Positions 25,710 to 42,513 of a DNA stretch of 64,000 nt are shown here, one piece after another. Made by a program: the position numbers and the translations under genes. This stretch comes from Phytophthora colocasiae (Eukaryota > Oomycota > Peronosporomycetes > Peronosporales > Peronosporaceae): NCBI GenBank assembly GCA_018806915.1, contig JAGKQI010000030.1, positions 218,501 to 282,500 on the forward strand, written 5' to 3'. The notes under the pieces are model-generated. The model saw only the letters and a program-made list of their open reading frames with translations, was not told where the DNA came from and made no database searches. Numbering within the stretch: position 1 is the stretch's first letter; each line of letters opens with the position of its first letter.

Positions 25710-25895
25710 GCGGGCTGAATCTTGAATGTCTTGAATGGCAGCACGCCACAAAATAGAAGCGCCAAGTTCAATGTCGCCTTTGACAGAGGTAGTGATTCGT
25801 ATCGCTATGATTGGTTGAAACCATGTGTCGCCTGTATGCGGTGACGCCTTAGACAAAGGGAAGTCGGTACAGGACAGCTGTGCGTCGACACAAGC

Positions 25896-26211
25896 TGTGA
25901 CGGGGGTCACACAGCACTTCACACAGAGGAAGGCTTGGAGTATACAAACTCCTAGTGAACGGCAGTTCACTCGGTCCCCAAAGACTTGGGGAGACTAACT
26001 AAAGATTAGGTAGATTTAAGACTGAATATATTATAGATACTTGTTAGCTTGGCCTGCAATACAAACTAAAAGATATCTATAGTGTAACCTATATAGAAGG
26101 TGATAGGTGGCTGCGGAGCCACCTGCCACGTGTCACCATGATGTGTGACACACCAAATGTATCCACTTCGGAAGAGTGACTAAAGTCACTCTTCAATGTA
26201 ACCCTGTTACA
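25896..26211 (-). repeat. E1 3' LTR
   Basis: This is a 316 bp direct repeat of 42198-42513. It carries many stem-loops, for example GAAGAGTGAC/GTCACTCTTC, CCCC(AA)/(TT)GGGG and GGTGGCT/AGCCACC. Confidence 0.95.
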
Positions 26212-26393
26212 TCCTCCCCCACTTAGATTCGACTCTCGTCCAATCAGAGAAGAGAGAAAATCCCTTTCACATTTCTCTCTTCAATGTCGAAATCGATCGA
26301 CCTGCCGACAGCTCTAGTCGCTGCGGCTTCTGCTCTCACAGAGCACAGGGCGCACTGCCAACGCGTACCAGGCTTCCTTGGAAGCCCAGCAAC

Positions 26394-27241
26394 ATGTCTG
26401 CAAAGGGTGCAAACCCAGACGCGCAAGCGTCTTCACGGAAGAAGGCTGCAAAGCCAACTTCCAAGCCAGCCAAGCCTCGCGGCAAGGCTTCGGCACTTCA
26501 TGAGGCCACCGATGTGGCCTCCAGGGCTCTTAGCTCGCCAGCAGCACTGCTGCGATGGCTAGCCCTAGCCAAAGGCGCAGTAGGTCTCCGTCCCTACCGC
26601 CTGATACTCGACCGAATCCTCGGTTCGAGTATAGGGACCATAGTCCCGGTTTCTGGAGTCCTTCCCAACAGGAAGCGACTCTTGTCAGCTACTCGGGTGA
26701 CGAGAGCGACAACGATGACGCCGAGGGCAAGCCTGCGGCTGGTGCTCCGACCACGGAGGAGCACCATGGAGACAAGGACACCGCGTCCAAGTCTCCCGAT
26801 AACACCAGCGGCCGTGGTGGCGACACTACGCCACCTGTCAGACATCTGACACTTGCTGAAGGGCGCGAACGCGCCCGGGCCATTCTGGCAGAGGAGAAGG
26901 TGCCCAGCACCAACTCCAAGAAGCGTCATGCTTCACAGTCTCCTTGTCAAGACATGACAAGGAGAAGGGAGCTCGAACAGATCTTCGGCCCCGACGACGT
27001 CGACGATGACGCCGATGATGAGGAGGGGCTCATCCGCGAGCCCCAAGAGATCACTAACGATCTCGATGAGCAGCAAGAGCTCTTTCAGGCTGCTCAACAG
27101 CCAATGCGCACCGCACCAACGGTCGCACGTGAGTCTCATCAGATGAGGACTCTGCCCACCAGCGGGGATACTACCCGCCCGAGCAAGGCTCGGGAGCTGC
27201 TGCGTATCTCGAGCAGCTCCAGGACCCACGTCCTCTCATAG
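26394..27241 (+). CDS. E1 antisense ORF, N-terminal part
   Basis: This plus-strand coding stretch lies between the 3' LTR and the pol end and runs opposite to pol. It starts at ATG 26394 (MSAKGANPDAQASSRKKAAK), a Lys/Ala/Pro-rich basic tail. It then moves to a second frame near 26555 (SPSQRRSRSPSLPPDTRPNP), followed by a Ser/Asp/Glu-rich disordered region and a conserved-looking block (RRRELEQIFGPDDVDDDADD). The stop is at 27239-27241. Together with the next ORF it looks like one protein split by small indels. The function is unknown, and no database family comes to mind. A comparable ORF sits at the same place in E2. Confidence 0.5.
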
Positions 27242-27273
27242 GGGGCCACTCCAAAGGCGCCTATGAGCGGGCC

Positions 27274-28677
27274 TTGGTTCAGAAAGAACCTCTCTTTCAA
27301 GACAACCTCTCTGTTGCCAGGTGCGTGCTTCTAGCACAGCACCGAATTCCTCTCAAGGAATTCACCTCGCTTCGCAAGAAGCCTGAGACTAAGGGTGGTC
27401 TCAAGCCCACATGGGGTTACCCATGGGTTCTCCCAGAGAACACTGCGTCGTGGGTCGACGCTGAGGACCTCTTTTGGCAATGGGTCCGGTTGACAGTCAA
27501 GTCAACCCAGGAGTACCACAAACTCCGTGACGAAGATCACCTGGAGGACATCCTCCGCCTCCGGGCCCTTCGTGTCCAGTTTGTCCACCTTGTATGCAAA
27601 CGTCAGCTCCATCATCAGATGGAGCGACTGAGAACTGAGTCTCAGTCCAGCGCTCACAATGAGCGCGGGTATGGAACACATACACCTGTGTTCCAACCCC
27701 GTTCAGCGGCTAAGAAGCCGCGGACTACTTACGAGGCTGCCGACGTGCCTCTTCCCAGCACGCGACAGCCTTCGGGCAGTCAACCTGGAGCCGCTCAATC
27801 GGCTCCCAGGTACTCTGCGACGCAGGGTACCCGCGCCACTTCACTCGGAGCTGGCGCTTCCCACCGCGACGCCGCTCCTGGAGAACCCGCTCCACATGGT
27901 AGTGGCGTTCTCCGTTCCGGTCAAGCAAGGCCGGAGGAGGCCTCGCCCGACTGCTCTTTCGAGCCGTCCCCGACGTTGGGGACTCAGAGGCCTTCGACTG
28001 GGCCTCTTGACCGACTTGTTGCTCAGCAACAGGAGGAGATCCGCCTCCTCCGAGCGCGTGTCCTCGCGCTTGAGGTCGCTCTTGGTCTTGGTGTTGGCGG
28101 CCAGGCTGCCTCTGCAGTCGGCCAACCTGGTGTCGTGCGCCTACAGGAAGACCTGCGTCTCGCGATGCAGGGTCTTCATGGTCGTGTAGACGGTAGTGCC
28201 TCTTCGCGGGCACTTGACTCCCTTCGTCAAGAGGTCTACGACCTTCAGGCGACGATGTCTCGCCGGGAGTCGCAACCGTACGCGTACTCCCCGTCATCGC
28301 GCGACTCGCGCCTAGGGGCCTACTCGCTTGGCCCCTCGGTGTATCCACACCGCTCGTACCTTCCACCGGGGTACGGCTTCGCCCCTGGGAGTCACCAAAC
28401 TCCCTATTACCTGGGGCGTTCTGCGCCTGACGCTAACCTCGCGTCGAGGAGGTTCACTCTCCTCCTCGCGGCCGCCTGCAACCTCTTGAGGGGCCGCATG
28501 ACCCTGAGGGTCATGGTACCGCTTCAGACGACCCACATAAAACGTCGGGTGGGTCGTCATCGACTTAGGCAAGTCGATCGTGTAGGCAGCGCCGTGCCTA
28601 CTCAGGACCTTAAAGGGTCCAATGAAGCGATGCTTCAACTTGTTGCTCACCGTGGAGCTAACAGTGTTAAGAGGTAG
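27274..28677 (+). CDS. E1 antisense ORF, C-terminal part with coiled coil
   Basis: This 467-codon plus-strand ORF starts with an alpha-helical domain (ENTASWVDAEDLFWQWVRLT ... LRLRALRVQFVHLVCKRQL), then a Pro/Ser/Ala-rich linker. A coiled coil lies at about 28004-28250 (LVAQQQEEIRLLRARVLALE, then SLRQEVYDLQATMS), followed by a Tyr/Pro-rich tail. It overlaps on the opposite strand the E1 chromodomain (27728-27904) and integrase C-terminus (to 29409). Each strand's structured part faces a low-complexity part of the other strand's product, as expected of true overlapping genes. The last part of the ORF (after about 28430) runs antisense to conserved integrase and is probably non-functional read-through. 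Confidence 0.5.
   Translation: MVQKEPLFQDNLSVARCVLLAQHRIPLKEFTSLRKKPETKGGLKPTWGYPWVLPENTASWVDAEDLFWQWVRLTVKSTQEYHKLRDEDHLEDILRLRALRVQFVHLVCKRQLHHQMERLRTESQSSAHNERGYGTHTPVFQPRSAAKKPRTTYEAADVPLPSTRQPSGSQPGAAQSAPRYSATQGTRATSLGAGASHRDAAPGEPAPHGSGVLRSGQARPEEASPDCSFEPSPTLGTQRPSTGPLDRLVAQQQEEIRLLRARVLALEVALGLGVGGQAASAVGQPGVVRLQEDLRLAMQGLHGRVDGSASSRALDSLRQEVYDLQATMSRRESQPYAYSPSSRDSRLGAYSLGPSVYPHRSYLPPGYGFAPGSHQTPYYLGRSAPDANLASRRFTLLLAAACNLLRGRMTLRVMVPLQTTHIKRRVGRHRLRQVDRVGSAVPTQDLKGSNEAMLQLVAHRGANSVKR
27725..28366 (-). CDS. E1 pol C-terminus: linker and chromodomain
   Basis: In a frame shifted from the integrase ORF, a low-complexity linker leads to a well-formed chromodomain (HYHVERVLQERRRGGKRQLR, then VKWRGYPASQSTWEPIERLQ) ending at 27725. 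Chromodomains of this type bind modified histone tails and guide integration. The frame change from the integrase lies near 28350. The whole piece is overlapped by the antisense ORF on the plus strand. Confidence 0.75.
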   Translation of the reverse strand: MEGTSGVDTPRGQASRPLGASRAMTGSTRTVATPGETSSPEGRRPLDEGSQVPAKRHYRLHDHEDPASRDAGLPVGARHQVGRLQRQPGRQHQDQERPQARGHALGGGGSPPVAEQQVGQEAQSKASESPTSGTARKSSRARPPPALLDRNGERHYHVERVLQERRRGGKRQLRVKWRGYPASQSTWEPIERLQVDCPKAVACWEEARRQPRK

Positions 28678-29409
28678 GTTCCTAGTGTGGAGTAGCACTA
28701 AGGCCCCCACATTAAATACACTTAAGTTTCCACTCCCATGCTGGTCTGAGTACTCCTTTTGCTTGTCCTGTGCGAGTGCCATTGCATCTCGCACCCGGCT
28801 GATCACATTCAGCCTGTTGCCGACAAATGTCGACAACTTCTTCCGCAGTGCGGCTGGTTCCACACCGGAAACCTGGGAGGAAAGCTCTTTCCGAGCCTCT
28901 CCCCCACTTACTCTCGAAGCCGCGGTGCCCCCACCCAGTGTGAGCGGCACCAGGGGGTTCCGAAGCCCGTTCAAGTAGAACGGCGTGAACCCCGTTGACG
29001 CGTGTACCGCGTTGTTGAGTGCAAACTCAACCATAGGCAGCTGCGCTGACCAAGAGCGCGGCGCCTCAGCGCAAACACTGCGCAGCACGTCCTCAACCAC
29101 TCGGTTGACGCGCTCAGTCTGACCATCGGTCTGCGGATGGTCCGCTGTTGACATCGTCAACCGTGTTCCTAGCAATTGGAACAGCGTTTTCCAAAACGCA
29201 GCGGTAAACCGCGGGTCGCGGTCAGAGACAACAGTCTCAGGCAACCCGTGATAGCGGAATACGCTATCAAGGAACAACTTCGCAGTTTGTTCCCCGGTAA
29301 TGGTCTCAGAGACCGGAGCAAGATGCACCATCTTGCTCAACCGGCATACAAACACCACAATGCCGGTGTTCTTCTGGTCATCGGCCGGAAGGCCGAAGGC
29401 CGAAGACAA
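28312..29409 (-). CDS. E1 integrase core and C-terminal domain
   Basis: The ORF has the integrase residues VSDRDPRF (second Asp) and DGQTERVNRV (catalytic Glu) with normal spacing, then FALNNAVHASTGFTPFYLNG and the GPFKVLSRHGAAYTIDL C-terminal fold. The first Asp (SLDFVFGL) is in the neighbouring frame that ends at 29378. The frame changes near 29385 and again near 28350. Confidence 0.88.
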   Translation of the reverse strand: MSSAFGLPADDQKNTGIVVFVCRLSKMVHLAPVSETITGEQTAKLFLDSVFRYHGLPETVVSDRDPRFTAAFWKTLFQLLGTRLTMSTADHPQTDGQTERVNRVVEDVLRSVCAEAPRSWSAQLPMVEFALNNAVHASTGFTPFYLNGLRNPLVPLTLGGGTAASRVSGGEARKELSSQVSGVEPAALRKKLSTFVGNRLNVISRVRDAMALAQDKQKEYSDQHGSGNLSVFNVGALVLLHTRNLPLNTVSSTVSNKLKHRFIGPFKVLSRHGAAYTIDLPKSMTTHPTFYVGRLKRYHDPQGHAAPQEVAGGREEESEPPRREVSVRRRTPQVIGSLVTPRGEAVPRWKVRAVWIHRGAKRVGP

Positions 29410-30310
29410 AGTCGAGACTCATCGACTTCCAGCAGTCCAGTGGGGCTGGCAGGCTCTGCAGCGGAGCCGACGCGTGCCCCGCAGGCTTCACGCGCTGACA
29501 TGTTTCACATGTCTTGATGTACTTGGCCACCCACTTGTACATGTGGGCCCACCAAAACATCAGAGAGACCCCATGATAGGTCTTCTCTCGGCCCAAGTAG
29601 CCACTCGAAGGCACATCGTGTGCCTCGTGAAGTATATCATACTTCAGATCCTCGTCGTTCGGAACAACGACCCGCGGAGGATCCCCGGGCTCCACCCGAT
29701 AGTGGAGCAGGCCATCGGCGCACTCATAGCGGTGAAGCCGTGCCCGCTGTCGAGGCGTAAGCCATTCGACCTTGGCATCCGTGCCAGCGGACAAATACCG
29801 CACAATATGGGCGAGGGTGTCATCGTCCCGATACGCCAAGCGTATTCGATCGTAAAGATCCGTCGTGGCCCGACTAATATGAGCGAACTCATAGTCGGGC
29901 CTGCGCGACAAAGCGTCGGCAAGCGTGTTGAGCTTGCCAGGCTTGTATTCAGCGCGGAAGTTATACTCCGCGAAGAATGACAGCCAACGCGCCATCCGCT
30001 GCGATAAGTGCGGCGTATGGATGGCTGTCCGCAAGGACGCGTGGTCCGTATAGACCACAAAGGGCCTTGAGCCCAGAAGATGCACCCTGAACTTGACAAG
30101 GACATACTTCATCGACAAGAGTTCCTTGTCGTGAACGGGATAATTCCGTTCGGCAGCCTTCAGCTGCCTGGACTGGAACGAGATCACCCTATCTCGTCCC
30201 TCATCGTCCTGTTGCAATAGCGCACAGCCAATTGCATAGTCGGAAGCGTCACAGACAACGCTAAACGACTTGGCATCGTCCGGCAACGCCAGGACGGGCG
30301 CGCATTGCAA
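29378..30310 (-). CDS. E1 RNase H and integrase zinc-binding domain
   Basis: RNase H has VCDASDYAIGCAL, the Glu in DKELLSMKY, and YTDHASLRT, all intact. It is followed by NFRAEYKPGKLNTLADALSR. The integrase HHCC region follows (HEAHDVPSSGYLGREKTYHG ... CETCQRVKP) and the first catalytic Asp (SLDFVFGL). The frame joins RT near 30330 after one shift. Confidence 0.88.
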   Translation of the reverse strand: MQCAPVLALPDDAKSFSVVCDASDYAIGCALLQQDDEGRDRVISFQSRQLKAAERNYPVHDKELLSMKYVLVKFRVHLLGSRPFVVYTDHASLRTAIHTPHLSQRMARWLSFFAEYNFRAEYKPGKLNTLADALSRRPDYEFAHISRATTDLYDRIRLAYRDDDTLAHIVRYLSAGTDAKVEWLTPRQRARLHRYECADGLLHYRVEPGDPPRVVVPNDEDLKYDILHEAHDVPSSGYLGREKTYHGVSLMFWWAHMYKWVAKYIKTCETCQRVKPAGHASAPLQSLPAPLDCWKSMSLDFVFGLRPSGR

Positions 30311-30326
30311 GCTCGCCTTGATGCTG

Positions 30327-32120
30327 TCAAAAGTCCTGGTGCTGGCGCTCCCAGCACCACTCGGCCTCCTTCTTCAGAAGGTCCGACGAAGGCTTTGCGA
30401 GTCCCGCATAGCCAGCACTGTACTTGTGCAAGTAGTTGGCTAAGCTTAACCACTTCCTCAGGTCCTTCTGTGACCGAGGAACAGGCCATGCCGCAATGGC
30501 TTTGACCTTGTCAGGATCCGCTCGGACCCCGACGCTGCTGACGAAGCAGCCGAGGACCTTAATCTCCTCAGCTGCGAAGACGCACTTGTCGATGTTGGCA
30601 TAGAGCTTGTTAGCTCTCATGACCTCAAACACTCGACGGAGGTGCTCTCGATGCACCTCTATAGCCGTCTTGCCTCCCTCGGCACGGCTATGGACGAATA
30701 TATCGTCAAAGTACGTCTGCGTGAACGCACGCAAAGGTCTAAACAACTGTGTGACCAAGCGATTGAAGGTCGCTGGTGCGTTGGATAGACCTTGTGGCAT
30801 TACCAGCCACTCCCAGAGCATACCGCTCGGCGTGCTCACGGCCGTGAGCGGGATATCACACTCCCGCATCAGGATCTGGTAGTATCCATCCACCAGATCC
30901 AGCGCGCTATACAGCGTGCAGCCGGCCATGTTGTTCAACAACACATCCTTGCGAGGGATCGGCGTCTGTGCTGGCACAGTCGCGCTGTTCAGCTTGTTGT
31001 AAGCATGAACCAGACGCCACTTCCCGTTCGGCTTGCGAACGCAGAAGGTTGGCGTCGAGTGCGGGGACTTCGATTCCCGCACCATTCCCGCTTTCGCCTT
31101 AGCGGCGAAGAACGCGTCAATGACGTCGCTCTGCTCTCGGGGCAGGGGCCATTGACGCGTGACACAATACTTTGTGCCTGGCACGAGATTGATCTCGTGC
31201 CTGATCGTTCGGTCTGGTGGGAGCTTTGAGGGTGGGTCCTTAGACACCACGTCCTCAAACTCCTTCACTAAAGGATACAACGGATCCTTCGGATTCTTCA
31301 TAATCTCGGAGCCCGTGCGCGACGCACGCTGCTTCCGGAACTCCTCCAGGACGTCTTCGTCCATCACTGAGGAGGAGTTCAACTCCTCTGGAGTGGGCTC
31401 CGGCCTAAGGAGAACCATCTCCGATATCTCCCCGGCCTTCAACTCGGCCAGGAAGTCCTCCATCGCGACTTCCTCGAGGTTCAATAGCTCTGATACCTCA
31501 GGCAGGGGTGCCAACTCGATGGCCCCCGCCTTCACGCGATGCCCGGTCACGCCGTCGAAGCATTCTTCGACCGGCTGTGACCTAGGAGCCTTTAGCTCCT
31601 GTCCCAAGTCCTCGTGGACTTCTTCGGGATGGTATTCTACCAACTCCGGCTTACGACCATGGCGTGGGGTTAGCTTACCCACGCCCGGTGATGCCACTAC
31701 GATGGCATCACGAGCCCTCTTGGCTCCGTGCGGAACTGCGTTACCCGCATCGGAAGCACCCTTGGTGTCTTCCTGATCAGTTATGGTCTGAGCGACCTTG
31801 CGTCGAACTACTTCTCGTACGCCTGGCGATGCCACTACTTCGGCATCGCGAGCCATCTTGGCTTCCTGCGGAACTCTTGCATCCGCTTGTGGACCTAAGC
31901 TACCCACCTGGTTAGTGCTCTCGGGCACTACCACAGTCGCAGCCTGTACGTCGCTGCGACTTCGTGCGTGGGGGCCTGCTGTTGTTTCAGACCCACACGT
32001 AGGGCAAGGGCCTCCGCCCGTTGCCCCGGCCATCCATGGCCCACGATCACTTCTCGTGTGGGGCGATGTAGCACCGACTACACCAGCCCCCAAATACTCC
32101 TCGGACGCTGCCGCGTTCTG
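30327..32120 (-). CDS. E1 reverse transcriptase with long N-terminal linker
   Basis: The frame is open from the E2 junction at 32120. A linker of about 260 residues precedes RT, which has HEINLVPGTKYCVTRQWPLP, FCVRKPNGKWRLVHAYNKLN, YSALDLVDGYYQI, MPQGLSNAPATFNRLV and the catalytic TYFDDIFVHS, all intact. The ORF stops at 30327 just before RNase H. Its codon phase at 32118-32120 equals that of the protease ORF on the other side of E2, so the two were one frame before E2 inserted. Confidence 0.9.
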   Translation of the reverse strand, partial: QNAAASEEYLGAGVVGATSPHTRSDRGPWMAGATGGGPCPTCGSETTAGPHARSRSDVQAATVVVPESTNQVGSLGPQADARVPQEAKMARDAEVVASPGVREVVRRKVAQTITDQEDTKGASDAGNAVPHGAKRARDAIVVASPGVGKLTPRHGRKPELVEYHPEEVHEDLGQELKAPRSQPVEECFDGVTGHRVKAGAIELAPLPEVSELLNLEEVAMEDFLAELKAGEISEMVLLRPEPTPEELNSSSVMDEDVLEEFRKQRASRTGSEIMKNPKDPLYPLVKEFEDVVSKDPPSKLPPDRTIRHEINLVPGTKYCVTRQWPLPREQSDVIDAFFAAKAKAGMVRESKSPHSTPTFCVRKPNGKWRLVHAYNKLNSATVPAQTPIPRKDVLLNNMAGCTLYSALDLVDGYYQILMRECDIPLTAVSTPSGMLWEWLVMPQGLSNAPATFNRLVTQLFRPLRAFTQTYFDDIFVHSRAEGGKTAIEVHREHLRRVFEVMRANKLYANIDKCVFAAEEIKVLGCFVSSVGVRADPDKVKAIAAWPVPRSQKDLRKWLSLANYLHKYSAGYAGLAKPSSDLLKKEAEWCWERQHQDF

Positions 32121-32580
32121 TGTAATGGGTCTACCTAGACCTATTAGGTGGCGTACACGTGCGCTTACGTGTATGAGGAAGCGTGCAATTAGAATAGACT
32201 TAATTTAAGTATACTTATTTAAATAAGTATACTTAAATCAAATATAACTAAATTAAACTGCAAAATACCGTAAAATGAGAACTGTTATTGAATTTGGCAT
32301 AAGCCAATTATGGACCTCCTAAAACTGTTTGTTATCTATTTCTAAAGGGTCTGCCAACGTGTGGTTGGCAGAAACTCTGCTCAGTGATTGGTAGAAATCC
32401 GTTACTTTCTACCAATAATATGCACAAATGCACACGAACCATCCAATAATGTGGTTCGCCCATGTATCCATTGGTGTGTACAGCACACCAAGGTCTGAGG
32501 CCCATTTCCAACCTCTAACAGTTAACCTAACTGTTAGAGTTACAAGTGGTACAACCACTTGTACGTGTAACCCCGTTACA
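32121..32580 (-). repeat. E2 3' LTR
   Basis: This 460 bp repeat of 40087-40546 is packed with inverted repeats, among them ACAAGTGGT/ACCACTTGT (32542-32562) and CTCTAACAGT/ACTGTTAGAG (32513-32539). Confidence 0.95.
32203..32238. repeat. 36 bp perfect palindrome in the E2 LTR
   Basis: The half-site ATTTAAGTATACTTATTT is followed directly by its reverse complement. The same palindrome occurs in the other LTR at 40169-40204. It is AT-only apart from its C/G steps and could extrude as a cruciform or bind a dimeric protein. Confidence 0.85.
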
Positions 32581-32681
32581 CCATCCCCCCGTTAAGATTC
32601 GACGTATCGGTCTCGATACGTCAATCAACAGAACTTGACAAGACCGTCAAGTTCCCAAGAGAAATCCGAGTTCATTTCGCA

Positions 32682-34220
32682 ATGGACTCGCCAACGCCCA
32701 CGTCTCCGTCCGCTACTGCGGACGCGCAAGCCTCACCTGCTGCCTCTGCAGCAGGAACAACGACCTCAGCAGTTCTCACTAGCACTGCTGCTTCCAGCGG
32801 TCCGACAGAGAAGATCTCTGTCACCAAGTACCATGCTCTCCATAAGGAGAAGCATGAGAAGAAGAAGAAGTCTTCTTCTCTAGCAGAGATTAAGAATCCT
32901 GCTGTCCCTCTCAAAGAACTCTTTGGAGAGGATCCTTGACTACGAGGAGGATGTCGAGGAGGGGGAGGTTGATGTCAAGGCTCCCGCTCCCGTGTCTTCG
33001 TCTAAAGACACGTCAGACCCACCCGTGGGATCTCGACGACCTCGTGATGAGGCCTCGGACGCTTCAAGCTCGAAGCGTCCGCGCAGTGATGATGAAGCGT
33101 CCCCCATGTCGAGGGCGCTCACTGCCCCGCGCACTGATCCGCCAGTGCGCACACCATGGATGCCTACTGAGGCAGAAATCCATGACCGGTTCGGTGCTAG
33201 TTCACCACCGAACCCGATACTGTTGTACTCATGCAACAGTATCAACGACGACGACGTCGCCGCTAAGGTTGTCTTTGAGTCCGAGGCTCAAAGACGCGAC
33301 TACTATATCGGACTCTTTCACGAGCTCCGATACTATGCAGCGAAGAAGACTTCGCGCAAGAGCAAAGTGCCAGAGTGGCAGGCACTTTGTCAGTCGTGGA
33401 ACGCCTTTGTTGAAAACTTTAACAAAGGCCCGAAGGCATTTCGCGAGCGCGTTGCTGCGGCTCGCGATCGCTACTACACTTACACTACGCGTGGTAAGTG
33501 TGAGCGCCTCCATGATCAGTCCATGGAAGCGGGGATCCCATGTGCCGTTCCCTTTGGCACACCCTGTCCGTGTTGCCCACCCTTGGCAACACGCCTTACC
33601 GAACGTGATCTTCTGGGGTACACGGTCGTCCGTGTACCCGATCACATCAAGGAGCTTCGTGGTCGTCTCGAGCCACGCGGAGCTCCGAGTGCTGTGGCTG
33701 ACCGCAGCACTCCTCGTGCAGGGTTTACCCCCTGCAAGTTATGGTGGGCTTCGTACGCCCTCACCATTTCCGGAACGTCCTCCATCAGGACGTTCCGCGG
33801 CTCCCATGTATCTCGATGGGGGAGGAAATCCTCTCCAACGAATACGAAAACGAACCCCTTGAGAGTTCGTTCTCTTATGAGCCACGATCCGCTCAACAAT
33901 CCAGCGGATCGCTCCACGCGCGTCGCGCAACGGCGGCGGAGGGGGCGGGAACACTCCCTCCGTATGGTCACCGCTATGACCATGACGATCGTGCCCTGCA
34001 CGATCGAGTTGCTGCGCTGGAGCAGACACAGAGCGCTGAGATAGCGGCTCTGAAGCAGGAGGTTCGTGTCCTCCGTGCTGAGGTCTGTGAGGCAGCTCAG
34101 ACTGCCTCGAACCTCTCGTCCGGTCTTGGGACGAGAGTGAGCCGGTTGGTCGACCGTGTCGACGGTCTCGAGAAGGCCTTCCAGGCCTCTCGCACTCCTC
34201 AGTCGGACTACCAACCCTAG
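32682..34220 (+). CDS. E2 antisense ORF (three frames), coiled-coil C-terminus
   Basis: ATG 32682 opens a Ser/Thr/Ala-rich N-terminus (MDSPTPTSPSATADAQ). The frame changes near 32930, and the frame from 32923 holds an acidic region, a short RRPRDEASD stretch and a helical domain (EAQRRDYYIGLFHELRYYAA, KVPEWQALCQSWNAFVENFN, FRERVAAARDRYYTYT). Near 33735-33870 the frame changes again. The last part (to a stop at 34220) ends in a coiled coil (LHDRVAALEQTQSAEIAALK, RVSRLVDRVDGLEKAFQA; 33985-34190). The order of basic/disordered N-terminus, helical domain, linker and coiled coil is the same as in E1. The end overlaps the minus-strand chromodomain region of E2. Function unknown. Confidence 0.5.
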
Positions 34221-35646
34221 GTAGTCCGTGCTGTACGTACGGCTTCAACCGCCCGACGTAGAAGGTCGGGTGGAGCTCCATGCTGGACGGTATGTCCAGC
34301 CGGTACGCGTTACCGTGCCGTTCAAGTACTTTGAACGGCCCAATGAATCTTGGAGCAAGCTTGCTTGCTCCAAAATCAGACACTGCATGTTTAGGTAGGT
34401 TTTGCGTAGCTAACAAAACCAATGAACCCAATTTGAATTCATTTATGTTGCCCCTACCAACATTATCAGCTGTGATAGCATCCTGGACAAACCGTATGAC
34501 GGCTTGTCTTCGCTGGACAAAGTCTAGCGCACTCGAGCTGACTCCTATCAGCTTGTCGCCTTTGTCAGCAGCAGGCCCTGCCTGCTTGCTATCATCTCTC
34601 ATGTCTGTGCCAGGCACAGACATCGCGCGCTCGTTCCTGCTAGAACGAGACGTCGCACGCGTCACCGCAGCTGATAGTGTGCTGCTATCAGTTGCATTCT
34701 GCGGTTGTTCGGACGCAACCGTAGATCCTCCCCCACTTAAGGAGGAAACTACCCCACCGAGCATGCTCGGCAATCGTGGATGCCTCATGGCATTCACGTA
34801 GAACGGTGTATGCCCTGTCGAGGCATGCACCGAGTTGTTGATGGCAAACTCTGCCATCGGCAAGCACTCGCTCCAGTGCGGGAACGAGTGAGCGTAGCTC
34901 TTCAACGTGTCACCCAGTACACGGTTGACACGTTCGGTCTGTCCGTCCGTCTGCGGATGATCCTCAGTCGACATTGATAACTGTGAACCAAGAAGTGTAA
35001 ACACTTCTTGCCAGAACCGCGCTGTGAAGCGTGGATCACGGTCCGACACAATGTCGAGCGGCATGCCATGGTGTTTGAACACCATGTCAACAAACAGTCG
35101 CGCAGTCTGCGCGGCTGTAACAGTAGCCGGGACGGCAGCAAGATGAACCATCTTGCTGAATCGGTCCACAAAGACAACGATGCCCGTCCTCCGCTTGCTG
35201 TCAGGCGGAAGACCAAAGACAAAGTCCATGGACATGGACTGCCAACACTCCGACGGAGTCGGTAGTGATTGAAGAGGAGCCTGCGAGAACTGCGCAGGCT
35301 TCACGCGTTGACAAACCTCGCAAGCACGTACGTACTTGCGCACCCACTTGTACTGGTGGTGCCAGTAGAAGTCACGCGTGAGAAGAGTGTATGTCTTCTC
35401 ACGACCCGGATGCCCTGCCGTGGGGGCATCGTGATACTCGAACATGATCCTCAACCGGAGGTCATGATCATTCGGAACGACAATGCGATCCGCATTGTCG
35501 TCTACTGCACTGTACAACAGTAGGCCTTCGTGTACACGATAGCGGTGTACACGAGCTCGAAGATGAGGGGATTTGCTTCCGACGTGCCACGTCGGAAGGT
35601 GCTGCGAGGAACTCCAGCAGCCCCTTCGCGTCTGCATCCCTTGCAT
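33690..35646 (-). CDS. E2 integrase and chromodomain
   Basis: The ORF from 35646 contains the HHCC zinc domain (EYHDAPTAGHPGREKTY ... CEVCQRVKP) and the core residues SMDFVFGL, VSDRDPRF and DGQTERVNRV, all present. An insertion rich in Ser and Thr follows, then GPFKVLERHGNAYRLDI, a long disordered linker, and a chromodomain start (WIVERIVAHKRTNSQGVRFR, IRWRGF). Near 33810 the frame shifts and the chromodomain continues as HRDTWEPRNVLMEDVPEMV. The frame also differs from the RNase H ORF, changing near 35570. Confidence 0.88.
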
Positions 35647-37645
35647 ACGCGTTCTTCACGTCGTCAATCAACGTTGACGACGGCACACTTGTCCTCACGA
35701 CGCCAACTGCGTTGGCGTCGACCGTCTCCGCGTAGTCAGGTCGACGCGATAACGCGTCGGCCACTACATTGAGTCTTCCGGGTTTGTACTCTACCCGGAA
35801 GTTGTACTCCGCGAAGAAGGACAACCATCTCGCCATACGTTGCGAGATATGCGGCGATTTAATCGCCGTACGCAATGATGCGTGGTCTGTATAGACCACG
35901 AACGGTCTACTCCCAAGTAGATACACTCGGAACTTTGCGAGTGCATACTTCATGGCAAGGAGCTCCTTGTCATGTACGGGATAGTTACGCTCAGCTGGCT
36001 TCAGCTGACGCGATTGATAGTAGACTACACGATCACGCCCTTCGTGATCGTGTTGCATCAATGCACATCCGATTGTAAAGTCGGATGCATCGCACACTAC
36101 GTAGAATGGACGATCTTGGTCCGCCACGGCCAAGATCGGCGCTTCAGTCAAGCCCTGCTTGACTGCACCGAATGCCTCCTCGCACTCGGTCGTCCAAATC
36201 CACTCAGCTTCTTTCTTAAGAAGCTGTGACAACGGGCGAATCTTGCCCGCATAGTTCTCCACGTACTTGCACAAGTACGTGGCAAGCCCAAGGAACTGTC
36301 TCAGTTCCTTCACATTGGATGGCGTGGGCCATTCATTGATCACTCTGACCTTCTCTGGGTCAGGGCGCACGCCGTCTTTCCCCACGAGACACCCCAGCAC
36401 GGGTATCTCGCTCTTACCGAAGATTCACTTCTTCAGGTTCGCATAGAGCTTATGTTTCCTCATAAGCTCTAGCAGCTTCCGGAGATGCACCTTGTGCATC
36501 TCAATGTCCGTCTTCCCGTTCACAGCCCGGCTGTGGACGAACACGTCGTTGAAGTAGCTCGGTGCGAAGTCGCGCACCGAGCGCAATTGATGTGTCACGC
36601 ATCTATTGAACGTCGCAGGGGCGTTCTTAAGCCCCTGTGGCATGACGAGCCACTCCCAAAGCATACCGCTTGGAGTGCTTACCGCTGTGAGAGGGATGTC
36701 CCTCTCACGCATGAGGATCTGATAGAATCCATCACGCAGATCTAGAGCACTGAAGATAGTGCTCAAGGCCATCGAATCGATGATAACATCTTTTCGCGGT
36801 ATCGGCGTCTGCGCCGGTATCGTCGCATCGTTCAACTTGTTGTACGCATGAACGATGCGCCAGCCGCCCTGTGGTTTCTTAACACAGAACGTTGGGGCAC
36901 TGTCCGGGGACTTTGACTCCCGCACTTGACCTGCAAGACGACTACTTTCAAAGAAGTCGTCGATCGCTTGAACTTGTTCACGCGGCAGTGGCCACTGCCG
37001 TGTAACACAGTACTTCGTGCCCGGCACGAGATCAATCTCGTGCTGTACGCCCTTGTCCTTCGGAAGCTCCGAAGGAATCTCGTCCGGGAGTACATCCTTG
37101 TACTCCCGCAGAATCTCGTAATAGGGACTCGACTTCAACGAGTCCCAACTCTGCTCCTCGAAGCGTTGCTTCTTGGTCTTCGCACTGAGGGGGACGCCCT
37201 CAGTGATGCCATCGACGACGAGCTGCTTCAGCTCCTCGGCCTCGCGATCCACTCTCTCGATATCCGAGAGAATGCAAATTTGTTCGATGCGTCCATCGTA
37301 CAAGTCCCGCGCGAAGCGCTTCCAACTCATCGTTGGAAGTGCGGTCAACGCCGACGCACACGTCGGCGGATTCTCCAACCGCATCCTCTGGTACTGTAAC
37401 CCAGTACCAGTACGTGTCAAGACGTTCAACGTCTCGACACTCGGTGTCTGCCCTGCAGATACACCCTTCTCAGTCACGGACTGAGACTCACACAGCTCAC
37501 TGAGCTGGTGCCGCGCGCTCTGATACTGTACCGCAGTATCAGTTCGTGTCAAGACGTCCAACGCCTTGACACTCGGTGTCTGCACCGCAGACCCCCCCCC
37601 ACAGTCATGGACTGGGACTCGCAAAGCTCCCTGAGCTTGCACCAC
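35468..37645 (-). pseudogene. E2 reverse transcriptase and RNase H with stop and active-site change
   Basis: Two ORFs in the same frame (37645-36425 and 36400-35468) are separated by a single TGA at 36427-36425, where the sequence reads ANLKK-stop-IFGKSE and E1 has a Cys. RT motifs are otherwise regular (FSALDLRDGFYQI, MPQGLKNAPATFNR). However, the catalytic box reads SYFNDVFVHS, with Asn replacing the first Asp of the YxDD motif, which should abolish polymerisation. RNase H is intact (VCDASDFTIGCAL, DKELLAMKY, YTDHASLRT). This copy is therefore dead although its LTRs are identical. Confidence 0.88.
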
Positions 37646-38025
37646 GAAGGTCTGCCATGGAGCTCAGCTCCAGGCGCTCCACGTCCAAGGCATCCCACCT
37701 TGGACAGGACTTTATCGCCATCGTCAGCGGATTCCTTCCGCTGACTCGCACATTCAAGCACTGCTTGTGTGCCGCTCATCGCGTGCAGCACCGCTGCACG
37801 TGCGCACGCAGGTTTTTCTGGTGCTGGGCGTTTGCAACCGCCAGCACCTCCTGCCGCACCGTCGGTTCCCTGAACCGCTGCGCCTCCATCCGCTCCTACG
37901 GATGGAGCAACTTCACCCGCTACTACGGATGAAGCAACCGCATCGTCGACTCCCGGAGTCGACGTGCTCTCGCTAGCTTCCTGCGCTAGCGAGTGTTCGC
38001 TTGTACACGTATCGTCAGCTCCCAA
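37549..38025 (-). other. E2 linker between protease and RT, frame-disrupted
   Basis: An Ala/Gly/Ser-rich stretch (ASESTSTPGVDDAVASSVVA) lies between the gag-protease stop and the RT ORF, in a third frame. It corresponds to the long linker before RT in E1 and holds no catalytic motif. Confidence 0.55.
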
Positions 38026-38240
38026 GCTGACGCACGATCGCTAGTTCCCGGAACTAGCAGCGAATGTTCGCCTGTACACGCATCATCAGCTCCCGGAGCT
38101 GATGTACGATCGCTAGTTCCCAGAACTAGCAGCGACGCGCCAGTGGCGTCAGCTCCCAGAGCTGACGCACGCCTTTCGGTTCCCCGAATTTTATTTATTT
38201 CGTCAACTCCCGGAGTTGACGCGACGTCGTCGGCGCGACC
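37940..38240. repeat. Tandem array of imperfect hairpin units in the E2 gag-pro tail
   Basis: Units of roughly 50-70 bases alternate the hairpins CTAGTTCCCGGAACTAG-type and TCAGCTCCCGGAGCTGA-type. On the minus strand they encode repeated peptides such as TSDRTSAPGADDACTGEHS and LLVPGTSDRASA. The array lies just before the stop of the gag-protease ORF. Confidence 0.7.
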
Positions 38241-40037
38241 CTTGGGGGCTTGAAGTACCTCCACGGATACCGGTAATACCGGTATTTTACCTTCTCTCAG
38301 GTGAATCGCATTCACCTGACCATCACTCATGTGACAAACATCATTCAGATGTTTACGCGTCAGGTGATTCACATTCACCTGACCATCACTCATGTGACCG
38401 CGACCCTTCGGCTCAGATTTCTGAGTCGACACACATTTTCTCCCAACGACTCTCGGAGTCGTTGATGGTCGCCGGCGGCGATCGGCGGCAGCGGCGGCCG
38501 CTGCTGCCTCAACTGGGGATTCACATGCACCGGCCGGTGCATGTGCAGCACTGACAGGGCCATCACTCTTTGTCGCGCATGTGTTGTTGAAGCGTACGAT
38601 CGTACGCTTCTCCCAGTTGATCACCGGGTCATGCCGTGCAAGCCACGGCATGCCTAATACCAAGTCGAACTTATCGTCTAGATCCAAGACGATAAGGTCT
38701 TCTACAAACGTCCTTCGTTTGTAAGAGAAGCGCACACGGACCACGCGCTTCCCACTCCTTACGGTGGCACCTGTTGCCAACCGCACCTCCAACACGCCGC
38801 GAGGCGTGTCGGTCTCTTCGAAGTCAAACCTTCGAAGACTTCCCTGTCGAACAAAGTTGTTCGACGCGCCCGAGTCGACTAGGGCACGAAGAGAGTTCGC
38901 TCTCTTCGACATCACGTTCAGGATGACAAGGTTTGGCTTGTCATCTTGCAGCTTACAGCGAGAAACCTTCTCGCTGGGGGCAGCAGTCCTCATCGTCGCG
39001 TGTCCAAGCTCGACACGCGAGACTGCATCACCAGTAGGACGCCCCGTGCCTACTGGTCCTTGGCGTTTTTTTGAACGCCCGCCCGCTGTGCACTCGCGTG
39101 CATAGTGACCGATGTTACTACACTTGTAACATCGAACCTTGCTGTTCCTACGCTGCTGTTGACCAGCAGTCGTAGCACCCGAGAGGTCCATAGGTTCCGG
39201 AACTCCCGTCTTCACAACAGGACGCGCCGGCTTCGGCGCGTTCGCATGGAGTTTAGCTTGACGCCGGCTAAACCCCTCTTGCATTGCAAGGCTGATCGCC
39301 TCCTCGAGAGTATTCGGATACTCTCGAAAGAGATACGTCTTGACGGGACCATCTCTTAGTCCCTTCATGAACGTGACGACCTTGGTCGCCTCGTCGATCG
39401 GGTTGGCCACTATGTTCGATACCAAGTATCGAGCACGCTGGGCAAAGGTGTGAACATCATCCTTGCCCTGTTGCAGATCGAGAAACTCTGCTCTCGATCT
39501 GAACTCGTTCTTCGGAGGCTCAAACGCAAGCTTGAGTTCCTCCTTGAACACCTCGTACGTACTGAAGCACGTAGGATCCGAGAGTCGGCGCCCATAGGCC
39601 CAACTCCTCGCACGTCCGCCAAGACATGACATGGCGAACGCGACCTTCGACATCGGATCGACGATACGTCGAGCCGCAACGGCTGTGTCGAGTTCGACAA
39701 GCCACCGAAGGAGGGTCTCGTCCCCCTTCCCCGTGTAGGTACTCACGTGGAGTTTCAACGACCCCACGCGTGGCTTAGGGGAAGCCACCGAGGCAGCAAC
39801 ATCTCGTTGCTCCTTAACAATGTACCCCAGAGCAACACCGTGTTGCTCTGTCGGCGATAGCGTACGAAGCATCGTAGCTACCGCTGCCTCTCCAATGACT
39901 CGCGAGAGTCTTTGGAGAGCCTCCCACTCTGGATCAGACAGGTGGGCGCAGTCCGTGCGCGTCACGGACATTTGAGGGGTCCCAGCGGATCCCTCATCCA
40001 TTGGGGAGTTCTCTACCCCGCGTTCGTATGACTCCAT
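37986..40037 (-). CDS. E2 Gag-protease
   Basis: This 683-residue ORF starts at ATG 40037. The retrotransposon Gag domain (about residues 80-240, e.g. GRARSWAYGR, KGLRDGPVKTYLFREYP) is followed by a CCHC knuckle (CYKCSNIGHYAREC, about 299). The conserved GPVGTGRPTGD and the aspartic protease (LRALVDSGASNNFVRQG, about 385; LVLGMPWLARHDP about 80 residues later) complete it. Gag and protease are one frame here, whereas E1 has a shift at the equivalent GPVGAGRPTG. The C-terminal 100 residues are repetitive. Confidence 0.9.
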   Translation of the reverse strand: MESYERGVENSPMDEGSAGTPQMSVTRTDCAHLSDPEWEALQRLSRVIGEAAVATMLRTLSPTEQHGVALGYIVKEQRDVAASVASPKPRVGSLKLHVSTYTGKGDETLLRWLVELDTAVAARRIVDPMSKVAFAMSCLGGRARSWAYGRRLSDPTCFSTYEVFKEELKLAFEPPKNEFRSRAEFLDLQQGKDDVHTFAQRARYLVSNIVANPIDEATKVVTFMKGLRDGPVKTYLFREYPNTLEEAISLAMQEGFSRRQAKLHANAPKPARPVVKTGVPEPMDLSGATTAGQQQRRNSKVRCYKCSNIGHYARECTAGGRSKKRQGPVGTGRPTGDAVSRVELGHATMRTAAPSEKVSRCKLQDDKPNLVILNVMSKRANSLRALVDSGASNNFVRQGSLRRFDFEETDTPRGVLEVRLATGATVRSGKRVVRVRFSYKRRTFVEDLIVLDLDDKFDLVLGMPWLARHDPVINWEKRTIVRFNNTCATKSDGPVSAAHAPAGACESPVEAAAAAAAADRRRRPSTTPRVVGRKCVSTQKSEPKGRGHMSDGQVNVNHLTRKHLNDVCHMSDGQVNAIHLREGKIPVLPVSVEVLQAPKGRADDVASTPGVDEINKIRGTERRASALGADATGASLLVLGTSDRTSAPGADDACTGEHSLLVPGTSDRASAWELTIRVQANTR

Positions 40038-40086
40038 ACCAACAAACAGCAGTCGGTCGTGGGACGGACTACAAAGTGCTACCAGG

Positions 40087-40546
40087 TGTAATGGGTCTAC
40101 CTAGACCTATTAGGTGGCGTACACGTGCGCTTACGTGTATGAGGAAGCGTGCAATTAGAATAGACTTAATTTAAGTATACTTATTTAAATAAGTATACTT
40201 AAATCAAATATAACTAAATTAAACTGCAAAATACCGTAAAATGAGAACTGTTATTGAATTTGGCATAAGCCAATTATGGACCTCCTAAAACTGTTTGTTA
40301 TCTATTTCTAAAGGGTCTGCCAACGTGTGGTTGGCAGAAACTCTGCTCAGTGATTGGTAGAAATCCGTTACTTTCTACCAATAATATGCACAAATGCACA
40401 CGAACCATCCAATAATGTGGTTCGCCCATGTATCCATTGGTGTGTACAGCACACCAAGGTCTGAGGCCCATTTCCAACCTCTAACAGTTAACCTAACTGT
40501 TAGAGTTACAAGTGGTACAACCACTTGTACGTGTAACCCCGTTACA
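40087..40546 (-). repeat. E2 5' LTR
   Basis: This is a 460 bp repeat of 32121-32580. Its inner edge is followed (minus strand) by a two-base spacer and the primer-binding site TGGTAGCACTTTGTAG at 40084-40069. Confidence 0.95.
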
Positions 40547-40653
40547 TCCTGGCGGTTCCAGCGAACGCCCTTAGTCCTGACAGAGGTGGGAACATGACTC
40601 ACCAAAGCTCTGTCAGAGACTGCAGGCCGGCTAGCCCCAATGGCTTTGCCGCG

Positions 40654-41113
40654 TCAATCGATCCAGGGCTCGTGCTTCTCAAGCCACGGCATCCCTAGGA
40701 TCAAGTCGTACTTGTCCATCTCGAGGACAATGAACGACTCCACGCTGTCGAAGTCCTCAAACTTTATAGCCAGGTCCACCTGGACCTTTGGTACTTCCAC
40801 CACCGTACCATCGGCTAGTCGTACGGCGACTAGCCCACTTCCCTCGCTCTCACGTAGAGCGTCCTCAAACTTGCCGCGGTTACTCGCGACAGTTTGTCGG
40901 CGAGCAAAGTTCTTGCTCGCCCCAGAGTCTATCAAGACTCTAAAGGGGTTGTTAAACCCCCGTACACTCGCGTGTACCACCACCAGCCCACCGCTGCCCT
41001 TCTCCGCTTTGAGAGTCCCAAGACTCTCTGGGGCTAAGTCTCCACTGCGTGTGCCTCCCGCACCACCCGCATGGGGACTTAGTGTTTCCCCAGTAGGGCG
41101 CCCCGCCCCTACT
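40654..41113 (-). pseudogene. E1 protease region, split from RT by E2
   Basis: The frame runs from GPVGAGRPTGETLSPH, one base out of the gag frame, through FRVLIDSGASKNFARRQ (protease active site) to LGMPWLEKHEPWID and a TGA at 40656-40654 where a Trp codon is expected. Beyond the stop the same frame stays open to the E2 insertion at 40551. The protease is therefore cut by a nonsense codon near its end and then by E2. Confidence 0.85.
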
Positions 41114-42113
41114 GGTCCCCGGAGTTCCCCTGACTCTTGGGCGCCGGCTTCTTCCAGCGGCCCTTAGAGCCCTGGGGCTTGGAAGACCTCTTCCATTGTC
41201 CCCCAGAGGGGCAGACACGTGCGAAGTGTCCGAAACGCCCGCACTCGAAACATCGGATGCGTTTCTGCTCGGCGAGCCCCAAGTCCATAGGGGCTGGTCC
41301 CGAGCCTGCTCCATTCCCAGGAGCACTGGCCGACGCCGTCGTCGGCCCGCTGTGGCCTTGCCACGCGGAGGCAGGAGTCTGAGCCTGTGTATGGCTGTAC
41401 TCCTCCTGGAGCGCGACTTGAATCGCCTCCTCCATCGTGTTGGCCTGCACGCGGAACAGTTGCGTGCGGGCCGGGCATACTCTTAAGCCGTCCATGAACA
41501 CAGTTACTTGGATGTGTTCAGGTAGGGGGTTCCCTACCAGAAATGCCGCGAGAACGCGCATCTCTTGGATGTACTCGTGCAGGTCACGTTTCCCTTGCTT
41601 GCAGGCTAGGAAGCATGACCGCTGGCGATACTCATAGTTCGCCGGGAGGAATGCGGCCCGAAGCTGTTCGCACAGCTGGGCCCAGGATGTAAAACATCCA
41701 GGCGACGTCGCTTCGCGCGTGTACGCCCATGTCTTCGCTCGACCCCCGAGGTTAGACAGCGCGAAAGCGACCCGAAGTCGCTCCACCGAGATGAGAGCCG
41801 CCTCCATGGCGAGCTCAACTTCTCGGATCCAGAAGTGAAGGTTTTCACCTTCTTTCCCTTCATAGGGAAGAACCTTGAGTCTTAAAGGCTTGGGTTGAAC
41901 CGACCTCGGTTCAACCACAGGAGCCTCAAAGGTTCCTCGAACGTGCTCAATGAGCCCACGTTCGTACATGTCGAACGCCGCCACGCGTTCGACCTGCTCG
42001 GCCGGCGTCGCCGCCGCCAAGCTTCGGAAGGCATCCATCCCAAAGATGCCCGCCATCTTCCGGACCGACTCAAACTGAGAGTCGGTCAAGTGAGGAAACT
42101 CACTTCGATCCAT
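41109..42113 (-). CDS. E1 Gag
   Basis: ATG 42113 starts MDRSEFPHLTDSQFESVRKM. The Gag domain spans about residues 90-250 (FALSNLGGRAKTWAYTREAT, LHEYIQEMRVLAAFLVGNPL, FMDGLRVCPARTQLFRVQ), then a Pro/Ala linker and a CCHC knuckle (CFECGRFGHFARVC, about 300). It stops at 41109 with the pol frame beginning in the -1 phase. The homologous region of E2 has no shift, so this is either programmed frameshifting or a one-base indel. Confidence 0.9.
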   Translation of the reverse strand: MDRSEFPHLTDSQFESVRKMAGIFGMDAFRSLAAATPAEQVERVAAFDMYERGLIEHVRGTFEAPVVEPRSVQPKPLRLKVLPYEGKEGENLHFWIREVELAMEAALISVERLRVAFALSNLGGRAKTWAYTREATSPGCFTSWAQLCEQLRAAFLPANYEYRQRSCFLACKQGKRDLHEYIQEMRVLAAFLVGNPLPEHIQVTVFMDGLRVCPARTQLFRVQANTMEEAIQVALQEEYSHTQAQTPASAWQGHSGPTTASASAPGNGAGSGPAPMDLGLAEQKRIRCFECGRFGHFARVCPSGGQWKRSSKPQGSKGRWKKPAPKSQGNSGDQ

Positions 42114-42180
42114 GGTGGCCAACTACTTCTGGCCACAGAGGATTCAGGTAATCAATCTACCCGCGTAGGCGTAGGATTGA

Positions 42181-42195
42181 CTACAAGTGCTACCA
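42181..42195 (-). promoter_or_regulatory. E1 primer-binding site
   Basis: On the minus strand, two bases after the 5' LTR, TGGTAGCACTTGTAG begins with the TGG complement of a tRNA CCA end. E2 (40084-40069) and E3 (45738-45749) have nearly the same site with the same two-base spacer, so all three probably prime from the same tRNA. Confidence 0.7.
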
Positions 42196-42197
42196 AG

Positions 42198-42513
42198 TGT
42201 GACGGGGGTCACACAGCACTTCACACAGAGGAAGGCTTGGAGTATACAAACTCCTAGTGAACGGCAGTTCACTCGGTCCCCAAAGACTTGGGGAGACTAA
42301 CTAAAGATTAGGTAGATTTAAGACTGAATATATTATAGATACTTGTTAGCTTGGCCTGCAATACAAACTAAAAGATATCTATAGTGTAACCTATATAGAA
42401 GGTGATAGGTGGCTGCGGAGCCACCTGCCACGTGTCACCATGATGTGTGACACACCAAATGTATCCACTTCGGAAGAGTGACTAAAGTCACTCTTCAATG
42501 TAACCCCGTTACA
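42198..42513 (-). repeat. E1 5' LTR
   Basis: This is a 316 bp repeat of 25896-26211. Confidence 0.95.

What the first reader, a model, noticed from the sequence alone, without database searches (positions are those of the whole stretch)
25896..42513. Two nested gypsy elements built almost entirely from serial short hairpins
Both E1 and E2, in LTRs, gag, pol and antisense ORFs, contain short inverted repeats (arms 5-11, loops 3-8) one after another, about every 20-30 bases. Checked examples: 27606-27625, 27626-27647, 27650-27666, 27673-27694 and 27707-27720 (five in 115 bases); 29302-29314, 29316-29338 and 29341-29366; 35827-35848, 35853-35867, 35881-35900, 35906-35921 and 35924-35943, the last set across conserved RNase H code. 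One is GAATTCCTCTCAAGGAATTC (27344-27363). The copia elements, the CRN gene and E4 do not show this. Conserved proteins are kept, so synonymous choice seems shaped by pairing. Possible causes are RNA folding for packaging, protection from or feeding of RNA silencing, or repeated template switching that perfects quasi-palindromes.
Basis: partly seen in the sequence, partly recalled or inferred. Interest (0 to 1): 0.92.

Follow-up and report, generated by a model that had tools for sequence, protein, structure and literature searches.

The report
Retrotransposons studded with serial short hairpins
One clade of LTR retrotransposons in an oomycete genome carries far more short perfect hairpins than chance or than neighbouring elements, silent sites inside the hairpin arms vary little between copies, and the pattern resembles the genome-wide RNA folding known from some RNA viruses.

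Summary
All 14 named inverted repeats exist. Counting arms of 6 or more and loops up to 8, E1 holds 16.5-16.8 and E2 19.0 hairpins/kb; the rest of the window 2.2-2.7. Seven of seven gag/pol frames exceed every synonymous shuffle; five of five control frames do not. It is a trait of one gypsy clade: strong in E1 and E2, weaker in sister families E3 and F4; 30 other gypsy loci have 0-1.8/kb. Predicted folding excess reaches 37-43% in E2; the highest value in one virus survey was 23.4%. Hairpins sit at different places in different families but are constrained within E2: third-codon-position variants shared by two or more of 30 copies are 10/461 in arms, 74/746 elsewhere. Best reading: selection for pairing at silent sites, like the ordered RNA structure (GORS) of RNA viruses. 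Which strand, and whether RNA, is unresolved. Template-switch signatures were sought and not robustly found. The purpose is inferred. No other species' DNA was tested.

The parts
25896..42513 (-). E1: Ty3/gypsy element (gag-pol on the minus strand) interrupted by E2
   Evidence: LTRs 99.4% identical; gag, RT, RNase H, integrase-type Pfam hits
25896..26211 (-). E1 LTR, downstream copy; 7 hairpins in the 321 bases counted (25891-26211)
42198..42513 (-). E1 LTR, upstream copy
32120..40546 (-). E2: Ty3/gypsy element nested in E1; 160 hairpins (19.0/kb)
   Evidence: 461-base LTRs 100% identical
32120..32580 (-). E2 LTR; 9 hairpins
40086..40546 (-). E2 LTR
37986..40037 (-). E2 gag and protease frame, 40 hairpins
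   Evidence: Retrotrans_gag, zf-CCHC, RVP_2
36425..37645 (-). E2 reverse transcriptase frame, 25 hairpins
   Evidence: RVT_1
35468..36400 (-). E2 RNase H frame, 20 hairpins
   Evidence: RT_RNaseH
33739..35646 (-). E2 integrase frame, 34 hairpins
   Evidence: Integrase_H2C2, rve, SH3_Tf2-1; Chromo below its cut-off
41109..42122 (-). E1 gag
   Evidence: Retrotrans_gag, Ty3_capsid, zf-CCHC
30327..32093 (-). E1 reverse transcriptase frame, 23 hairpins
   Evidence: RVT_1
29378..30310 (-). E1 RNase H frame, 16 hairpins
   Evidence: RT_RNaseH, Integrase_H2C2
28312..29409 (-). E1 integrase frame, 22 hairpins
   Evidence: SH3_Tf2-1; rve below its cut-off
26394..28692 (+). E1 antisense gene (frames 26555-27241 and 27274-28677): conserved protein family of unknown function, also hairpin-dense
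27606..27720 (.). five consecutive hairpins (arms 8, 8, 7, 8, 5)
27344..27363 (.). hairpin, arm 8, loop 4
35827..35943 (.). five consecutive hairpins across RNase H code (arms 7, 7, 8, 6, 6)

Best explanation
[quoted passage not shown] Shown: the excess, its limits to a clade among the families sampled, its presence in LTRs and in coding sequence of either strand, its turnover between families and its constraint within the E2 family. Inferred: that the selected molecule is RNA, either the sense genomic RNA alone or transcripts of both strands. Inferred and weaker (about 0.3): the benefit is shielding, i.e. local pairing hides the RNA from small-RNA guides and from sense-antisense duplex formation, while arms of at most 12 bp are too short for Dicer-like enzymes. 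Compaction for packaging is the main alternative benefit.
For: Excess over synonymous shuffles in hairpin counts (7 of 7 frames) and in folding energy (19-46%, z -6 to -22, 9 of 9 E1/E2 frames on both strands; copia and E4 1-5%, z -0.5 to -2.3). 30 of 30 E2 copies at 14.0-21.6/kb and 10 of 10 E1 pieces at 15.3-18.5/kb against 30 of 30 other gypsy loci at 0-1.8/kb. One group on the tree (100/98). Third-position variants shared by two or more E2 copies: 10/461 in arms, 74/746 outside, p=4e-8; private ones 44/461 and 122/746. With stems called in 5 copies and variants counted in the other 25: 0.0076 against 0.0456 per site. Shared arm variants keep a WC or G-U pair in 25/36, private in 39/125, p=7e-5; robust stems 15/16 against 30/90, p=6e-6. 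Shared G-U:A-C 14:2, private 39:37, p=0.011. First and second codon positions change no faster in arms than in spacers (E2 35/341 and 63/621; E1 17/285 and 61/627). Compensatory changes in F4. Serial unbranched stem-loops, non-homologous positions, short duplexes and lower diversity at paired sites are all described for GORS (PMC7642675 passages).
Against: Strand evidence conflicts: internal mismatches fixed in at least 20 of 30 E2 copies are G-U 6, A-C 6, other 5; the window copy of E2 has G-U 10, A-C 13, other 12; 15 E1 copies give shared G-U 0, A-C 2, WC 1, other 1; with arms of 8 or more the shared G-U excess is 4:1 against 23:14, p=0.64; against shared transitions at unpaired sites (46:45) it is not significant (15:7, p=0.16). 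Antisense folds at least as well as sense in most comparisons, as palindromes partly must. Over all codon positions the shared:private ratio of arms differs from spacers only weakly (36:125 against 103:244, p=0.09), since private variants are rarer in arms too; at first and second positions shared variants are 19/903 and 51/1514, p=0.08. E2 covariation is slight: 7 pairs with two WC types against 1-3 in slid controls, two of them across one-base loops; 4 against 0-3. In E3 versus L078 stems diverge more, not less (0.097 and 0.088 against 0.070; 4 hairpins each). F4's folding excess (5-6%) is hardly above copia's (4-5%). No expression, probing or small-RNA data; no other species' DNA.
Confidence: 0.55

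Rival explanations
1. Mutational origin: template switching by reverse transcriptase or replication repeatedly copies one arm onto the other, perfecting quasi-palindromes without benefit.
For: Arms are nearly all strict Watson-Crick, with no long-term wobble preference in E2; hairpins turn over between families; a compensated haplotype with two covarying pairs in one stem exists (9 and 6 copies). The mechanism is documented elsewhere (PMC8794818 abstract and passages; PMC8604942 abstract). Polarised changes lie more in the 3' arm: E2 38/204 against 15/190, p=0.0019; E1 22/167 against 9/168, p=0.015.
Against: Changes are not gathered in one arm: 8 of 13 hairpins against 6.0 expected, 1 of 6 against 1.9, and 12 of 38, 6 of 20, 5 of 17 against 10.2, 5.9, 5.5 with fewer outgroups. 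Arms do not evolve faster than other sites (E2 0.135 and 0.142, E1 0.093 and 0.138). The 3'-arm bias is reversed in one F4 copy (3/57 against 11/63), absent in two others and in E3, and absent in unpolarised counts (E2 against E1, E3, L074: 73:76, 90:92, 79:78). It does not predict the G-U excess of shared E2 variants.
Confidence: 0.2
2. Both strands are selected, as sense and antisense transcripts or as single-stranded cDNA or cruciform DNA, so that only strict Watson-Crick pairs serve.
For: Even fixed G-U and A-C mismatches; folding excess on both strands; a conserved antisense gene in E1.
Against: Shared E2 variants favour G-U on the sense strand. In the window the 30 antisense-gene homologues compared match only E1, not E2; E3 and F4 were not checked for the gene.
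Confidence: 0.2
3. Hairpins serve packaging or compaction of the genomic RNA in virus-like particles rather than evasion.
For: Structure covers LTRs, gag, pol and 3' regions alike.
Against: Untested; sister families have about a third of the density.
Confidence: 0.2
4. Composition, simple repeats or assembly artefact.
For: E1/E2 are somewhat richer in G+C (0.54-0.58 against 0.49-0.52 outside).
Against: Dinucleotide, synonymous and junction-preserving shuffles; like density in 30 E2 copies on many contigs.
Confidence: 0.01

Closest known systems
[quoted passage not shown] coronaviruses, HCV, pegivirus (PMC7642675 passages; PMC3950689 abstract)
   Same: Folding excess over shuffles along the coding genome; serial, largely unbranched stem-loops; positions poorly conserved between relatives; duplexes kept short; lower diversity at paired sites.
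   Different: An LTR retrotransposon copied through DNA; E2 excess 37-43% (my 250-base pieces, 6 shuffles) against values of 7-17.5% and a highest of 23.4% quoted there (350-base pieces); arms nearly all strict Watson-Crick; present in some gypsy families of one genome and absent in others.
Template-switch mutations that create or perfect hairpins (PMC8794818 abstract and passages; PMC8604942 abstract)
   Same: Perfect arms and short loops; coding sequence affected.
   Different: Reported as individual events; the one-arm clusters they predict were not found here.
miRNA-like structures in maize transposable elements (PMC10760457, abstract and opening)
   Same: Local secondary structure in retrotransposons, linked there to small RNAs.
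   Different: Those are pre-miRNA-like regions; here hairpins of 6-12 bp tile the whole element. Densities were not compared.
Gypsy LTR retrotransposons of Phytophthora, small-RNA targets in P. infestans (PMC3522703, passages)
   Same: E1 and E2 are gypsy elements of a host whose nearest proteins are Phytophthora.
   Different: No report of serial hairpins came up in my searches.

Membership tests
Ty3/gypsy LTR retrotransposon | paired LTRs | tested here: met
Ty3/gypsy LTR retrotransposon | gag, then RT - RNase H - integrase order | tested here: met
   the copies have frame breaks
GORS | folding excess over shuffles across the genome | tested here: met
   (E1, E2; weak in F4)
GORS | stem-loop positions poorly conserved between relatives | tested here: met
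   pairs kept 0.42-0.47 for the 32 E1 and 59 E2 hairpins (0.44-0.53 for 4 E3 hairpins), slid controls for E1 and E2 0.21-0.29; helices with at most one mismatch 5/27, 2/25, 2/49, 1/39
GORS | uninterrupted duplexes kept short (14 bp or less) | tested here: met
   perfect arms 6-12 in E2, 6-11 in E1
GORS | lower diversity at paired sites | tested here: met
   E2; E1 sample too small
GORS | pairing follows RNA rules (wobble tolerated on the sense strand) | tested here: inconclusive
   disagree
GORS | structure present in the real RNA; effect on host recognition | not testable with these tools
   no probing or expression data
Template-switch product | several changes of one event confined to one arm | tested here: not met
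   low numbers
Template-switch product | constant direction of copying between arms | tested here: inconclusive
   for; against

The most novel reading that the evidence does not exclude
A clade of LTR retrotransposons evolved whole-genome hairpin armour, the strongest coding-wide folding excess known to me for any replicating element, as a defence against its host's small-RNA surveillance, built at silent sites and rebuilt at new places in each family.
Probability: 0.3. Interest if true: 0.9.

Novelty: new variant of a known kind. Interest (0 to 1): 0.78.

Why it matters
It would extend pervasive ordered RNA structure from RNA viruses to genomic retroelements and give a natural contrast inside one genome: gypsy families with about 20, 7 and 1 hairpins per kb facing the same silencing machinery. 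That makes the open question of what pervasive structure is for directly testable, by comparing small-RNA yield, transcript level and copy age between families.

Tried and rejected
Rejected: chance, composition, assembly artefact. Directional arm copying: suggestive at polarised sites but not in pairwise counts, so not claimed. Wobble test in the window copy alone: mixed with decay after insertion, little use. Relatives in viral contigs: 13 stretches matched a pattern, none confirmed. F4 copies L079-L086 proved 98-100% identical to L074 or L075 and added little. L097, picked as a distant antisense-gene relative, proved a 94% E1 copy. Structure prediction of the antisense protein (collected) gave mean pLDDT 36.7 and pTM 0.19, too poor to search with; no solved relative by sequence. 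One search timed out and was repeated smaller. A random genome sample was planned and not obtained.
Full report
What is there. The region holds two nested Ty3/gypsy elements, both with gag-pol on the minus strand. E1 spans 25896-42513 (LTRs 99.4% identical) and is split by E2 at 32120-40546 (461-base LTRs, 100% identical). Gag, protease, RT, RNase H and integrase-type domains are recognised. The host looks like a Phytophthora, since the closest proteins are from that genus; the assembly (92.5 Mb, 105 contigs) is unnamed.

All 14 named repeats are perfect. Counting arms of at least 6 with loops up to 8, without overlap, E1 has 16.5 and 16.8/kb in its two parts, E2 19.0/kb, the rest of the window 2.2 and 2.7/kb; arms of 8 or more are 3.2 and 4.6/kb in E1, 11.5/kb in E2 and 0.2-0.4/kb outside. 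The 500 bases on each side of E1 hold 1 and 0 hairpins. In seven gag/pol frames the count exceeds all 200 synonymous and all 100 junction-preserving shuffles; in five control frames it does not. Three antisense frames (28, 9 and 13 hairpins against shuffle means 4.0, 2.1, 2.9) and the LTRs share it. Folding energy in nine E1/E2 frames exceeds synonymous shuffles by 19-46%, against 1-5% for copia and the other gypsy. In E2 perfect-arm lengths do not fall off geometrically: 6:43, 7:40, 8:26, 9:44, 10:22, 11:12, 12:2.

It is a clade trait among the families sampled. Thirty E2 copies (3.9-kb pieces; the search scored 40 places) have 14.0-21.6/kb; thirty loci of other gypsy families (the best scorers of 150 RNase H hits, so not a random sample) have 0-1.8, mean 0.79/kb. 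E1 relatives L061, L062, L064 and L097 have 18.2, 17.1, 15.8 and 14.3/kb and ten 0.9-kb pieces 15.3-18.5; L063, of which only part aligns, has 8.2. Family E3 (L065-L067) has 7.2-7.9 and its 93% relative L078 11.3; family F4 (L074-L076) 6.0-7.0, and eleven 1.3-kb pieces 3.8-6.9; L077, 94% like E2, 15.7. On a tree of the RNase H region the E1, E2, E3 and F4 rows form one group (100/98) apart from six hairpin-poor rows and the window's E4; several rows are short and F4_L074 has a long branch. Predicted folding excess (sense/antisense) follows: E2 36.5/42.7%, E1 23.4/31.3%, L077 25.4/36.5%, E3 13.0/11.9%, F4 5.6/5.1%, copia 4.9/3.7%, the window's E4 1.2/4.3%, three hairpin-poor gypsies -7.4 to 0.2%. 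F4 is thus hardly above background by this measure.

Turnover between families, constraint within. Hairpins called in E1 or E2 rarely exist in the other families: pairs kept 42-47%, slid controls 21-29%, helices with at most one mismatch 5 of 27, 2 of 25, 2 of 49 and 1 of 39; much of the excess over slid pairs is expected from unchanged bases. Between families double changes are near the expected number. Within families stems mostly diverge less than other sites (E2-L077 0.023 and 0.011 against 0.053-0.055; E1-L061 0.005 against 0.013), but stems were called in one of the two sequences, which biases this by up to about twofold, and E3-L078 goes the other way (4 hairpins). In F4 six non-independent comparisons sum to 18 double changes against 4.5 expected, 13 of them compensatory. 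The cleaner test is polymorphism among 30 E2 copies. At third codon positions, variants shared by at least two copies are 10/461 in arms and 74/746 elsewhere (p=4e-8); private variants are 44/461 and 122/746 (p=8e-4); at first and second positions shared variants are 19/903 and 51/1514 (p=0.08). Calling stems in 5 copies and counting, at sites uniform in those five, variants among the other 25 keeps the contrast, 0.0076 against 0.0456 (60 random splits). Over all positions, variants in 2-4 copies are 10 at 1466 arm sites, 56 at 1994 spacer sites and 19 at 439 loop sites; in five or more copies 26, 47 and 19. Shared arm variants keep a Watson-Crick or G-U pair in 25 of 36 cases, private ones in 39 of 125 (p=7e-5). 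Taking private variants as mostly decay after insertion (inference), pairing is kept through cycles of transposition.

RNA or DNA, which strand? Shared E2 variants favour G-U over A-C on the sense strand 14:2 against 39:37 in private ones (p=0.011; 11:1 against 30:26, p=0.02, with arms of 7; 4:1 against 23:14, p=0.64, with arms of 8). The direct contrast with shared transitions at unpaired sites (46:45) does not reach significance (15:7, p=0.16; 11:3, p=0.08). Mismatches flanking E1 stems are G-U 20, A-C 6, but in E2 39 and 40. Mismatches fixed in most E2 copies are G-U 6 and A-C 6 (10 and 17 with looser stems), and the small E1 sample gives 0 and 2. Sense-RNA selection, selection on RNAs of both strands, and a DNA-level process all remain. 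I put RNA first because the G-U excess appears where it should, in transmitted variants, and because the GORS parallel is close.

Template switching predicts several changes at once in one arm, and faster arms. Neither was seen. A 3'-arm bias of derived changes in E2 (p=0.0019) and E1 (p=0.015) was seen at sites where all outgroups agree (arm-flip p 0.005 and 0.018), but one F4 copy shows the opposite (p=0.05), E3 and two F4 copies show none, and unpolarised pairwise counts are even. I treat it as unconfirmed.

Likely function. GORS in viruses is associated with persistence and with poor recognition of the RNA by cell sensors (PMC3950689, abstract). In P. infestans small RNAs map along two abundant Gypsy elements in both orientations (PMC3522703, passages). 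A transcript folded about every 36 bases into arms of at most 12 bp would offer few open guide sites and no Dicer-length duplex; this is inference. E1 adds a possible reason: its 3' part carries a conserved antisense gene (101 homologues among 7997 scored, 31-71% identical, nearly all named ones Phytophthora), so sense and antisense RNAs could meet.

Novelty. Full-text searches for oomycete or Phytophthora retrotransposons with hairpins, palindromes or antisense frames, for GORS with retrotransposon, and for structured LTR retrotransposons listed no paper of this kind (listings); most subscription papers are not in that library.

Limits. One genome only; no expression data; no random genome sample; only 36 shared arm variants in E2; many tests were exploratory and uncorrected.

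Noticed in passing
26394-28692 (+): E1 carries, antisense to gag-pol, a conserved protein gene (relatives up to about 720 aa across Phytophthora, many labelled 'ATP-binding cassette superfamily' without any Pfam support in the four relatives scanned). 129 matches in the host genome, many in open frames of over 700 codons. AlphaFold model unusable.
   Followed up: partly
36425-37645 (-): In the aligned RT region this E2 copy reads YFNDVF where E1 reads YFDDIF, at the place of the usual RT catalytic motif (recalled); with the frame breaks this copy looks non-autonomous.
   Followed up: no
49044-50480 and 61664-63104: A 1.44-kb direct repeat, 99.65% identical (probable LTRs of the other gypsy element), with an internal array stepping by 23 bases.
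   Followed up: no
L031-L060: Hairpin-poor gypsy loci average 0.79/kb, below the 1.0-2.7 of shuffled window sequence over the elements, as if hairpins were avoided; shuffles of these loci themselves were not run.
   Followed up: no
37386-37637 and 37988-38135: Short tandem duplications (steps of about 132 and 71 bases) inside E2's gag-pol.
   Followed up: no
E1 stems: In E1 the 5' arms are richer in G than in C (0.36 and 0.24) although a hairpin's arm composition is the same on both strands; E2 shows no such skew (0.28 and 0.27).
   Followed up: no
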